This document shows, piece after piece, positions 3,222-60,061 of a stretch of DNA of 64,000 nucleotides (within the stretch, counting starts at the first letter, position 1; each line of letters begins with the position of its first letter). This stretch comes from Limosilactobacillus fermentum (lineage in GTDB: Bacteria; Bacillota; Bacilli; Lactobacillales; Lactobacillaceae): NCBI RefSeq assembly GCF_013394085.1, contig NZ_CP040910.1, positions 648,387 to 712,386 of the forward strand, in the 5' to 3' direction. Position numbers and translations under genes: made by a program. The notes under the pieces were generated by a model that was not told the DNA's origin, did no database searches, and saw nothing but the letters and a program-made list of their open reading frames with translations.

Positions 3222-3758
3222 GTGAACCGGGCACGGATTCAAGAATTAATTGAGCAACGGATGAGCCAACGAAAGGGGCTTTACCAGGTGACGTTACAAG
3301 ACGCCACCCATTTCACCCTCAATGGCCACCCCTACCTACTGAAGAAAAACTACCGGGAGGCCTTCAACGGCGATAGCTTAGCCGACCGTTTTAGCCCCCT
3401 GTTGACGAAGTACGATTACATTGTTGGTGACTGGGGGTATGACCAGTTGCGCTTGCGGGGCTTTTACGCGAAACCCGGGCAAGGGGAGGAAGAGCAGGGC
3501 GTAGGATGCATTAATGATTACCTGATGGAAGAGTGTAACTTTGGGTGTCCTTACTTTATCATCCAAAACCTGGAGGTTGCTCACCCCAAGCGACCACGGA
3601 AACCCCGGACGCGGCGGCGTGGCCGAGCGGAGATCAGTGAAGAGAAAAAGCCCCTTAAAGAACCGGCGCTAAGCAAGCGACGGCACCAAGAGGTACGGCG
3701 TGTGAAGGGAAAGGGTAACCGAACGAAGCTAGTGGTACGGACGCGAAAGGATGACTAA
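3222..3758 (+). CDS. YutD family protein (DUF1027)
   Basis: A 178-residue protein with the conserved YutD core in the first ~115 residues: a DYIVGDWGYDQLRLRGFY segment and CINDYLMEECNFGCPYFI, with conserved cysteines. The C-terminal ~60 residues are a basic, low-complexity tail rich in Lys/Arg, probably disordered and possibly nucleic-acid-binding. The function of the family is not established. The start is GTG. Its stop codon shares a base with the ATG of the HAD gene, so the two are translationally coupled. Confidence 0.85.
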   Translation: MNRARIQELIEQRMSQRKGLYQVTLQDATHFTLNGHPYLLKKNYREAFNGDSLADRFSPLLTKYDYIVGDWGYDQLRLRGFYAKPGQGEEEQGVGCINDYLMEECNFGCPYFIIQNLEVAHPKRPRKPRTRRRGRAEISEEKKPLKEPALSKRRHQEVRRVKGKGNRTKLVVRTRKDD

Positions 3759-4540
3759 TGAGCAAGCAGGAGAGTTACGAAGGCTACTTGATTGATTTGG
3801 ATGGGACCATGTACCGGGGCAAGGAGAAGATCCCGGCGGCCCCTAGTTTTATAAGGCGCCTGCACGCGGCTAACAAACGGGTGCTCTTTGTCACCAATAA
3901 TTCGACGCGGTCTCCTGAGCAGGTGGCGGCCAACCTAGTCACTAACCACCAAATTCCGGCCCAGCCGGCGGAGATCTACACAACGGCCTTGGCGACGGCC
4001 GATTATTTGGCTAAGCGGGCCGGAGACCGCCGCCGGGTTTATATGATCGGTGAACAAGGGCTAAAGGATGCGTTGGAAAGCAGGGGCTTTGAATTGACGG
4101 ACCAGCGCCCTGATTTTGTGGTGGTCGGCTTAGATACCGAGGTAACCTATCGCAAGCTGGAGGTTGCCGTTTTGGCAATTTTAGCGGGGGCTACCTTCAT
4201 TGGTACTAACGCCGACAGTAACCTTCCTAATGAGCGGGGGCTGACTCCCGGAGCGGGTTCGTTAGTCAAGTTGGTCGAGTACGCAACCCAAACGAAACCC
4301 ATCATGATTGGTAAACCAGAGGCCATCATCATGGAGATGGCCTTACAACGGGTCGGGTTAACTAAGGAACAAGTGGTGATGGTTGGTGATAATTACCACA
4401 CCGACATTGAAGCTGGGATCAACGTGGGCATGGATACGCTCCTGGTTTATACGGGAGTGTCGACTAAAGAGCAGGTGGCAAGAGAGGAGGTCCCACCAAC
4501 CCATGTGGTGGATTCATTAGATGACTGGATGGTGGAATAA
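3758..4540 (+). CDS. HAD-type phosphatase, NagD/YutF-like (TIGR01457 family)
   Basis: A 260-residue HAD hydrolase of the NagD-like class. The nucleophile motif DLDGT lies at 13-17, VTNNSTR (motif II) follows at about 46, and the C-terminal MVGDNYHTDIEAG block carries motif IV. Family members dephosphorylate small phosphorylated metabolites in the cytosol; the substrate is not readable here. It overlaps yutD by one base, and the next gene begins inside its last codons. Confidence 0.88.
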   Translation: MSKQESYEGYLIDLDGTMYRGKEKIPAAPSFIRRLHAANKRVLFVTNNSTRSPEQVAANLVTNHQIPAQPAEIYTTALATADYLAKRAGDRRRVYMIGEQGLKDALESRGFELTDQRPDFVVVGLDTEVTYRKLEVAVLAILAGATFIGTNADSNLPNERGLTPGAGSLVKLVEYATQTKPIMIGKPEAIIMEMALQRVGLTKEQVVMVGDNYHTDIEAGINVGMDTLLVYTGVSTKEQVAREEVPPTHVVDSLDDWMVE

Positions 4541-6374: not shown

Positions 6375-11067
<4,693 letters not shown>

Positions 11068-48214: not shown

Positions 48215-48248
48215 GCGAGGCTGGGGAAAGAATTCCCTGGCCTTTTTG
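48215..48248 (+). terminator. Terminator after mnmA
   Basis: AGGCTGGGGAA pairs with TTCCCTGGCCT (two G-T pairs), followed by TTTTTGC. Confidence 0.85.
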
Positions 48249-48300
48249 CATTCCATTTTCAAAGACCACCCTCGCCACTCTTACAATTTAGCCTGTATTG

Positions 48301-48420
48301 GAGGTTGGCTCGCACTTCCGATAACGTGCTCCCAACCACGGACCTAGTGGCTAAGTACGGCCGGAGAACGATGCGTACCGCATCAACCCCCGTCCTAGCT
48401 TAGCCTAACGGTCCGTCGAG
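48301..48420. repeat. Structured 120-bp tandem repeat, unit 1
   Basis: The unit is repeated at 48421-48540 with three base changes. It contains two nested inverted-repeat structures. Hairpin 1: GGTTGG (48303-48308)/CCAACC (48332-48337) with GCAC/GTGC inside. Hairpin 2: ACGGACC (48338-48344)/GGTCCGT (48410-48416), then GGCTAAG/CTTAGCC, ACGG/CCGT and GATGCG/CGCATC. No ribosome-binding site or credible frame is present. Function unknown. Confidence 0.92.
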
Positions 48421-48540
48421 AAGGTTGGCTCGCACTTCCAATAACGTGCTCCCAACCACGGACCTAGTGGCTAAGTACGGCCGGAGAACGATGCGTACCG
48501 CATCAACCCCCGTCCTAGCTTAGCCCAACGGTCCGTCGAG
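48421..48540. repeat. Structured 120-bp tandem repeat, unit 2
   Basis: 117 of 120 bases match unit 1. All three differences (48421, 48440, 48526) fall outside the predicted stems: before hairpin 1, in its loop, and in the internal loop of hairpin 2. Confidence 0.92.
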
Positions 48541-48558
48541 AAGGTTGGCTCACACTTC
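48541..48558. repeat. Truncated third unit of the 120-bp repeat
   Basis: AAGGTTGGCTCACACTTC matches the first 18 bases of unit 2 except for one G-to-A change. The array then breaks off just upstream of the amidohydrolase promoter region. Confidence 0.85.
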
Positions 48559-48564
48559 TTTTAG

Positions 48565-48593
48565 TGGACAGCGCTTTCTTTTACGACTATCCT
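48565..48593 (+). promoter_or_regulatory. Possible amidohydrolase promoter
   Basis: TGGACA (48565-48570) and TATCCT (48588-48593) with a 17-base spacer, directly after the repeat array. Confidence 0.4.
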
Positions 48594-58372: not shown

Positions 58373-58386
58373 CGAATCACTCCTTT

Positions 58387-58418
58387 GTAAGCTTTTAGAC
58401 ATGTAAGCTTTTAGACAT
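58387..58418 (-). repeat. Tandem 16-bp duplication in the leader of the Spx-like gene
   Basis: GTAAGCTTTTAGACAT occurs twice head to tail (58387-58402 and 58403-58418), immediately upstream of the gene's ribosome-binding site. Each unit holds the palindrome AAGCTT. Confidence 0.9.
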
Positions 58419-58611: not shown

Positions 58612-59586
58612 TTATTTAACCTTTTTCTTTTTGCGTAAGTGGCGCACCTGGCGGAAGGGGTAAGAAGCGGTCCCCAGTTCCAGGTCAACGAAGCGGTTAC
58701 CCATTTCCTCACCGTCAACTTGACCAAACTCAAGCGAGGTGGTGGTGTAGTGAAGGTGGGTGCCGACGAAGCGGTGGGCAAAGCGGGACCGGGCCAAGTG
58801 TTCCCGTAAGAAGAGCCACATCGTCCAGAAGGTAATCAGCCAGTTGTGGCGCTCGACGACTAACAACTCCAGGTTGGGTTCGGCGAGGTCACGGTCGGGA
58901 GCGACCTTCCGCCCGCCACCGATAAAGGGGTGGTTAGAGGCAATAACGATAAAGGCGTTAGGGAAGAGCTGGCGGGTGCGCTCTTGTTGGACCATCAGGG
59001 TGAAGGGGGCTTGGTCATATAAGACCCCCAGGGCCTGGGAAACGTAGGAAAAGGCCCCTAAGTGGAGCCGGTTGAGGCGCCGCTTACTTTTCGAAGCGTT
59101 GGTCCGGCTGACCACGGCGGCGTCAAAGCCGATCCCCAAGTTATTTAAAAAGTAGCCGTCTTCGTTTTTAATGGCGTCGTGATAGTGGCCAATGGTGACC
59201 GGTTCGGTAGTTTCGGCATCCAAAATTTGGTGCAGGGCGGTTAACGGGTTGGTTGAGATTCCGTAACCACGGGCGAAATCGTTACCGGTTCCGCAGGGGA
59301 TGTAGCCAATTGGCAGTGGGTGTTGCCGACCGTTTTTGCTCTGCAAGACCCCGTTAACCACTTGGTGTAAGGTACCATCGCCACCGATGACGATCAGGGT
59401 TTCGTCGGGCCGGCCGGCATGCCGGTCGGCCAGGCGCATCGTGAGGTAGGTGGCTCCTTCCTCGTCCCTGGTAAATAACGGGGTGTAGTCGAGTTGGGCT
59501 GCGTCTAAGGCAGCCTTAACGGTTGACCATGTTGAATTCCCCCGGCCCCCGCCGGCCACGGGGTTAATAATGATCGAGTAATGCAT
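58612..59586 (-). CDS. Diacylglycerol/lipid kinase family protein (DagK/YegS-like)
   Basis: A 324-residue lipid kinase. INPVAGGGRG opens the catalytic domain, VIGGDGTLHQVVNGV is the nucleotide-binding motif near residue 70, and PIGYIPCGTGNDFARGYG follows. Family members phosphorylate diacylglycerol to recycle it for phospholipid and lipoteichoic acid synthesis. Substrate is inferred from family. A GGAGG site lies just before the ATG at 59586. Confidence 0.9.
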   Translation of the reverse strand: MHYSIIINPVAGGGRGNSTWSTVKAALDAAQLDYTPLFTRDEEGATYLTMRLADRHAGRPDETLIVIGGDGTLHQVVNGVLQSKNGRQHPLPIGYIPCGTGNDFARGYGISTNPLTALHQILDAETTEPVTIGHYHDAIKNEDGYFLNNLGIGFDAAVVSRTNASKSKRRLNRLHLGAFSYVSQALGVLYDQAPFTLMVQQERTRQLFPNAFIVIASNHPFIGGGRKVAPDRDLAEPNLELLVVERHNWLITFWTMWLFLREHLARSRFAHRFVGTHLHYTTTSLEFGQVDGEEMGNRFVDLELGTASYPFRQVRHLRKKKKVK

Positions 59587-59632
59587 AGTTTCCTCCGGAT
59601 CATCAAAAAAGTGGGTGGGAAATAACCTCCGC

Positions 59633-59715
59633 TGCAGGTCGTATGACTAAGCTAGGACGAACGGTTGGCACGGGACGCACCGTTCTTCGGCCTGCTTAGG
59701 CACTGGAACTACGGT
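59633..59715 (-). repeat. Diverged, inverted relative of the 120-bp structured repeat
   Basis: CTAAGCTAGGACG is identical to the reverse complement of the 120-bp unit. The following ~50 bases (GGTTGG..GACGCA.CGTTCTTCGGCC..CTTAG.CACT) align with it at roughly three bases in four. CTAAGC/GCTTAG and GAACGGT/ACCGTTC form a hairpin in the matching place. Confidence 0.7.
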
Positions 59716-59754
59716 CATTTACCACATTTCTGTCTAACATTCGTGAATACAACA

Positions 59755-59788
59755 AGAGGCCGGGAAAAACAGAGTTTTTTCCCGGCCT
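59755..59788 (-). terminator. Probable rpoY terminator
   Basis: GAGGCCGGGAAAAA pairs with TTTTTTCCCGGCCTC across a short loop. It lies downstream of rpoY on the minus strand. Confidence 0.7.
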
Positions 59789-59845
59789 CCGTTAAACGCG
59801 AACAGATCGGCGCCGCAGGGTTAATTACCGTGGGCCGTTTAACGC

Positions 59846-60061
59846 TTAAAATTCAGTTAACTGGAAGTCCGCGTTGTTTTCTTGTTCGTAGGCCAGTGCC
59901 TTTTCATCCAACAGTTCGATAAATTCAACGTTGTAGTTGGTGTTTTCTTCTACTAACACGCGGGCAGCGGCTTCGGAATCGGCTTCCAGGTATAGGGATT
60001 GGGTGTTTTCCCGACGCGGGGTCGTGTTTTTGCTTGGTTGGTAATAAACTTTGAAAGTCAT
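59846..60061 (-). CDS. rpoY: RNA polymerase epsilon subunit RpoY
   Basis: A 71-residue protein matching the Firmicute RNA polymerase epsilon subunit (DUF1447): [27 protein letters not shown], then [28 protein letters not shown]. It binds near the beta-prime jaw of RNA polymerase and may protect against phage proteins. AGGAG precedes the ATG. An extended -10 (TGC TATCAT) is readable on the minus strand at about 60102-60110. Confidence 0.93.

What the first reader, a model, noticed from the sequence alone, without database searches (positions are those of the whole stretch)
48301..48558. Tandem 120-bp units predicted to fold into two hairpins, with changes only outside the stems
Two full units and an 18-bp third fragment lie in a 416-bp gene-free gap. 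Each unit has hairpin 1 (GGTTGG/CCAACC plus GCAC/GTGC) and a longer hairpin 2 (ACGGACC/GGTCCGT, GGCTAAG/CTTAGCC, ACGG/CCGT, GATGCG/CGCATC). The three differences between units all fall outside paired positions, as expected if the fold is selected. It lacks a frame, so it may be a small structured RNA, a repeat used as a protein-binding DNA structure, or a non-autonomous mobile repeat. I know of no named element with this sequence.
Basis: partly seen in the sequence, partly recalled or inferred. Interest (0 to 1): 0.78.

Follow-up and report, generated by a model that had tools for sequence, protein, structure and literature searches.

The report
Hairpin elements that invade transcription terminators
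The repeat is two copies of a hairpin-forming DNA element present in roughly 150-200 places in this Limosilactobacillus fermentum genome and in about 30 related species, and in relatives where it could be checked it sits inside the stop signals (terminators) at gene ends, so it is probably a small passenger element that lands where it does no harm.

Summary
The repeat is real, but its units are drawn in the wrong register. It belongs to a large dispersed family. The natural unit (H1, ~119 nt) is one long hairpin; the window holds two, 48321-48439 and 48441-48559, plus a remnant. Pairing is under selection: 28 of 36 pairs show two-sided changes in other species. Complete copies are H1 + ~26-nt linker + terminator-like hairpin H2; one lies in this window at 59611-59789. 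In six filled-versus-empty comparisons among close relatives, every empty site is an intrinsic terminator after a stop codon; the filled site keeps the terminator's foot and U-tract and carries the element in place of the upper stem. Best reading: a non-autonomous miniature element that replaces terminator tops and supplies its own terminator. Mobilising enzyme unknown. Closest known kind, from memory and not verifiable here: EFAR of Enterococcus faecalis. No Rfam or literature match found.

The parts
48321..48439 (+). H1 unit 1 (A-type outer stem GTGCTCCCAACC/GGTTGGCTCGCAC); read as RNA the better-supported strand is the minus strand
   Evidence: covariance model R2, 134.3 bits, E 5.8e-38; alignment A1
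48441..48559 (+). H1 unit 2, near-identical tandem copy
   Evidence: R2, 130.6 bits, E 8e-37; differences listed
48288..48319 (+). remnant of a third, decayed unit (only its right end, TTAGCC..TGT..GGAGGTTGGCTCGCACTTC)
   Evidence: direct reading of the sequence against alignment A1
48217..48244 (+). intact intrinsic terminator of mnmA, upstream of the array
48565..48593 (+). promoter-like site for the amidohydrolase gene, just after the array (consensus match only)
59611..59730 (-). second family member in the window, B-type (genus-wide) outer stem GTGGGAAATAACC; RNA sense strand is +
   Evidence: R2, 91.9 bits, E 3.8e-25
59730..59755 (+). linker of the complete element (CTGTCTAACATTCGTGAATACAACAA); closely similar linkers recur at other sites
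59756..59789 (+). H2 terminator-like hairpin of the complete element (GAGGCCGGGAAAAACAGAGTTTTTTCCCGGCCTC)

Best explanation
The repeat is a local tandem array of the structured half (H1) of a non-autonomous miniature mobile element of Limosilactobacillus. The complete element is H1 (one ~119-nt hairpin with conserved internal loops), a ~26-nt linker, and H2, a terminator-like hairpin. SHOWN: H1 is a large family whose base pairs are kept by compensatory change across the genus. Copies lie at gene ends at mostly non-orthologous places. In six relatives' sites the empty version is an intrinsic terminator, and the filled version has the element in place of the terminator's upper stem, with the A-rich foot and the 3' foot plus U-tract kept. 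INFERRED: the element enters terminator hairpins by an unknown trans-acting machinery. Because it brings its own terminator hairpin, which reuses the old U-tract, gene ends still terminate, so insertions are nearly neutral and copies build up. In L. fermentum a sub-lineage with a rebuilt outer stem (A-type) expanded, and arrays such as this one arose by unequal recombination between adjacent copies. The window's array follows mnmA's intact terminator, lacks a linker and H2 next to it, and runs antisense to both neighbours. It is most likely an inert or weakly acting leftover rather than a dedicated regulator.
For: Dispersed family: 65 BLASTN matches; 150 CM matches, all E <= 2e-19, at the scoring cap; 41 units in 400 kb of strain DR9, i.e. 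~190 per genome by extrapolation. Conserved structure: 24 RNAalifold pairs, 18 with two-sided changes; 92.9% of cells paired, 232 two-sided cells against 69 in shuffles; in other species 28 of 36 pairs with two-sided changes, 323 cells against 109 (alignment fitted to the model). Genus-wide: 31 of 50 genomes against 2 of 50 by BLASTN. Linker + H2: strong hairpin within 105 nt on the sense 3' side in 36/69 and 34/61 sites, 5/69 and 2/61 on the 5' side, 0 in shuffles; sequences. Terminator replacement; site-specific complementarity of flanks, permutation p ~0.001-0.008 in close-offset tests. Insertion at the window's site: the mnmA-amidohydrolase gap of G016 lacks it. Non-orthologous placement.
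Against: No transposition seen and no mobilising gene found. In DR9, 8 of 9 comparable sites are occupied identically and the ninth is a deletion, so there is no sign of recent movement. Terminator replacement was shown in six sites of close relatives of each other elsewhere in the genus, not at the window's site, where the array lies beyond an intact terminator. A wider-offset test of flank complementarity was not significant (p 0.14). Strong pairing conservation could also reflect a host function after insertion.
Confidence: 0.68

Rival explanations
1. A host-serving mRNA 3'-end element: H1 (with H2 and the retained foot helix) forms a three-way junction at the 3' end of transcripts and protects or tunes them, like REP/BIME 3'-UTR hairpins.
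For: Upstream gene reads into the sense strand in 46/64 L. fermentum sites and 48/64 other-species units, often with its stop codon 0-25 nt away. Wobble asymmetry favours one RNA strand. The filled site of L185 folds as foot helix + H1 + H2 at -92.9 kcal/mol, z -10.3.
Against: Among sites where both neighbours point the same way, orientation is only 37 codirectional to 28 opposed. Placement is not conserved between distant species. Close species differ in presence at the same gene.
Confidence: 0.2
2. A small trans-acting RNA family: H1 is transcribed on its own and acts on other RNAs or binds a protein.
For: Deeply conserved RNA-like fold with wobble asymmetry and invariant internal loops.
Against: At least 150 divergent copies here but none in a near relative (G016: no match); copies abut stop codons of ordinary genes; no Rfam match. 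Promoters for the copies were not tested.
Confidence: 0.05
3. A REP-type palindrome mobilised by an IS200/IS605 or RAYT Y1 transposase.
For: 15 Y1_Tnp genes in this genome; hairpin ends are typical substrates of that family (general knowledge).
Against: None of the eight IS loci read carries the unit as its ends; one has a unit ~200 nt away. Y1_Tnp is absent from several element-bearing genomes (G001, G009, G013, G022, G027, G029, G030, G042, G048). Y1 elements insert without deleting the target (general knowledge), whereas here the terminator top is lost.
Confidence: 0.05
4. A remnant of a terminator-targeting retroelement (group IIC intron type).
For: Group IIC introns also target terminator hairpins (general knowledge).
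Against: No reverse transcriptase domain in this genome and none in many element-bearing ones; no intron match in Rfam; group IIC introns insert beside the terminator rather than replacing its top (general knowledge).
Confidence: 0.02

Closest known systems
EFAR repeats of Enterococcus faecalis (Venditti et al. 2007, FEMS Microbiol Lett; recalled from memory, paper not in the held library)
   Same: As recalled: ~170-bp intergenic elements made of two independent stem-loops, no ORF, which integrate into unrelated 24-37-bp stem-loop targets, deleting most of the target hairpin and keeping part of its stem at the element's ends. That matches.
   Different: Different genus and, as far as tested, no detectable relation: no R2 match outside Lactobacillaceae among 295 Lactobacillales genomes (species unnamed, so E. 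faecalis may not have been among them) and no Enterococcus plasmid hit. EFAR sequences could not be compared directly.
SPRITE, BOX and RUP of Streptococcus pneumoniae
   Same: Dispersed intergenic hairpin repeats; SPRITE is terminator-like (PMC10969869)
   Different: Replacement of an existing terminator top is not described for them in the passages read; unit architecture and genus differ.
REP/BIME of enterobacteria
   Same: Many palindromic copies close to stop codons, often in clusters (general knowledge)
   Different: REPs are 20-40 bp (abstract of PMC3733652) against ~120 nt H1 plus ~60 nt linker/H2; no Y1 transposase association here.
bcr1, ERIC, YPAL and Efa-1 stem-loop repeat families (PMC2267715)
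   Same: 100-170-bp intergenic structured repeats
   Different: That survey covered 40 genomes; its tables list only L. johnsonii from the lactobacilli, with one genic family (Lac-1). This family is not in it.

Membership tests
EFAR-like stem-loop-replacing miniature elements (defining features recalled from memory) | two independent stem-loops, no ORF, ~170-190 bp | tested here: met
   H1 + linker + H2
EFAR-like stem-loop-replacing miniature elements (defining features recalled from memory) | empty sites are unrelated hairpins whose upper part is lost and whose foot is kept | tested here: met
   six sites in other Limosilactobacillus species; not shown for the window's own site
EFAR proper | sequence relationship to E. 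faecalis EFAR | not testable with these tools
Classical MITE | target-site duplication at a plain insertion | tested here: not met
   filled/empty alignments show replacement of target sequence and no evident duplication
REP | 20-40-bp palindrome | tested here: not met
   unit 117-120 nt
REP | associated RAYT/Y1 transposase | tested here: not met
Any Rfam family | score above gathering threshold | tested here: not met
Group IIC intron or relic | intron RNA match or reverse transcriptase in the genome | tested here: not met

The most novel reading that the evidence does not exclude
A genus-wide family of structured RNA elements that spreads by swapping itself into intrinsic terminators, by a mechanism that acts on hairpins rather than on a sequence and deletes the old hairpin top. 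Once in place it rebuilds mRNA 3' ends into a three-way junction that changes transcript stability genome-wide.
Probability: 0.2. Interest if true: 0.82.

Novelty: new member of a known kind. Interest (0 to 1): 0.6.

Why it matters
It adds a large element family (no Rfam match and none found in the papers searched) in a genus of food and probiotic bacteria. It gives clean natural filled/empty pairs, in which one species' terminator has been replaced while its neighbours keep the native one, so the effect of swapping a terminator top on gene expression can be tested directly. Finding the machinery that recognises hairpins rather than sequence would be new mobile-element biology.

Tried and rejected
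IS200/IS605 ends as parent: nhmmer on eight Y1_Tnp loci gave one unit only, ~200 nt away. Reverse transcriptase as mobiliser: absent from this genome. Phage origin: no match. Plasmid origin: one A-type copy on L. sakei, L. plantarum, L. brevis and other plasmids; in the one record opened it sits next to asnB, which looks like passive carriage with a gene. Integron attC sites: considered because copies follow stop codons; rejected since the window's neighbours are ordinary core genes (mnmA, ldh) and no cassette array is seen (reasoning; integrase not searched). Strain-level empty site in DR9: the only candidate was a deletion through the element. Flank complementarity over wide offsets: not significant; only close offsets were. 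The E. faecalis genome was not reached. The EFAR paper is not in the library. R1 was replaced by R2, which adds the mid stem.

Full report
What is in the window. The 120-bp tandem repeat is real and lies in the 416-bp gap between mnmA and an amidohydrolase gene. The flanks of nine element sites match L. fermentum DR9 at 97.8-100%, so the genome is taken as L. fermentum (1.89 Mb). Both strands fold better than every shuffle, the minus strand with the lower energy (-62.8 against -53.6 kcal/mol). The '18-bp fragment' is the true end of unit 2, and the first 18 bp belong to a decayed third unit. Only two differences separate the full units.

It is a family. BLASTN gives 65 matches in this genome. 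From 72 full copies, RNAalifold finds 24 pairs, 18 with compensatory changes. With a 36-pair structure, 92.9% of cells pair; 232 cells show two-sided changes against a shuffled mean of 69, and sliding the partner by 1-3 columns destroys the signal. Two outer-stem versions, GTGCTCCCCAACC/GGTTGGGTCGCAC (A) and GTGGAAAATAAC/GTTATTTCCCAC (B), are themselves compensatory. Model R2 finds 150 units here, the scoring cap, all at E <= 2e-19. A 400-kb sample of strain DR9, not chosen for the element, holds 41 units, which suggests ~190 per genome.

It is genus-wide. Outside the genus it is rare: 6 genomes among the other Lactobacillaceae in a draw of 301, and in a draw of 295 across the order only 4 genomes, two of them Limosilactobacillus (this one included) and two other Lactobacillaceae. 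In other species 28 of 36 pairs show two-sided changes; that alignment was fitted to the structure and includes nine weak reverse-strand matches, so the figure leans upward, but the slid controls stay near 40% paired against 90.8%.

Which strand. A.C on one strand is G.U on the other, so the tolerated wobble pairs lie on the reverse complement, here called the sense strand. Related copies are not independent, so the counts indicate direction only.

Complete element. In the sense direction, H1 is followed by a ~26-nt linker (CTTTCTATTGTTCATAAAAGTAGTT in several species, CTGTCTAACATTCGTGAATACA... in L. fermentum) and H2, e.g. GAGGCTGAGAGAAAAC..GTTTTCTCTCAGCCTC. A strong hairpin lies within 105 nt on that side in 36/69 and 34/61 sites, against 5/69 and 2/61 on the other side and none in shuffles. 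The array at 48321-48559 is two H1 units without linker and H2 beside them.

Where it goes. In 46 of 64 L. fermentum sites and 48 of 64 other-species units the gene upstream in the sense direction reads into H1, commonly with its stop codon a few bases away. Gene calls were made by longest ORF and are approximate. Where both neighbours point the same way, the split is 37 to 28, so orientation is only weakly biased. Placement is shared between close species but rarely between distant ones. For six sites, close relatives with and without the element were aligned. Every empty site folds as an intrinsic-terminator-like hairpin after the stop codon (-14 to -32 kcal/mol). In the filled site the A-rich foot and the 3' foot with U-tract remain, and the upper stem is replaced, e.g. 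AAAGGCGAG[element]CTCGCCTTTTT in L185 against AAAGGCGAGGCCGGAAGAAGAATTCTTCCAACCTCGCCTTTTT in L230. Site-specific complementarity of the two flanks is above permutation at close offsets (p 0.0008-0.008) but not over wide ones (p 0.14). The filled L185 site is predicted to fold as foot helix, H1 and H2.

History at this site. Between mnmA and the amidohydrolase gene, G016 (MnmA 98% identical) has no element and a gap ~180 bp shorter. Here the array lies beyond mnmA's intact terminator (48217-48244) and before a promoter-like site (48565-48593), antisense to both genes. DR9 has the same occupancy at 8 of 9 comparable sites, and a deletion at the ninth, so movement is not recent in L. fermentum.

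Mobiliser. Y1 transposases (15 here) do not carry the unit at their ends in the eight loci read and are absent from several element-bearing species. Reverse transcriptases are absent from this genome. The machinery is unknown.

Comparison. No Rfam match, and no paper describing it was found. A survey of stem-loop families in 40 genomes lists from the lactobacilli only L. johnsonii, with one genic family. From memory, EFAR repeats of E. faecalis have the same two-stem-loop build and the same habit of replacing stem-loop targets while keeping their feet; that paper is not held, and EFAR sequences could not be compared. I therefore say 'works like EFAR' and leave membership open.

Noticed in passing
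window 59605-59789: A complete element (H1 B-type + linker + H2) lies in the same window, just upstream of the start of a minus-strand gene (58612-59586) and facing what looks like a gene ending near 59855 on the minus strand.
   Followed up: yes
L040 4001-4134 (plasmid pLSW74_1); 33 further plasmid records outside CP033372: One A-type copy, ~87% identical, is carried on plasmids of L. sakei, L. plantarum, L. brevis, S. paracollinoides and others, beside asnB in the record opened: apparent transfer out of an L. fermentum-like source.
   Followed up: partly
L065 ~3740-3940, L069 ~4210-4390, L063 ~7540-7740: A second inverted repeat, GACAGGACAAAT..ATTTGCGCAA, brackets some units on both sides, as if the element sat in the middle of another palindrome or terminator.
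   Followed up: no
G016 genome: A near relative by MnmA (98% aa) shows no family member, although L. fermentum has at least 150: loss there or expansion in L. fermentum.
   Followed up: partly
G030:C2 / L128: A small contig of another species carries an element whose neighbouring gene is 98.7% identical to the L. fermentum one: recent transfer or assembly mix-up.
   Followed up: no
window 58386-58418: Short 16-bp tandem repeat TGTAAGCTTTTAGACA, 2.1 copies.
   Followed up: no
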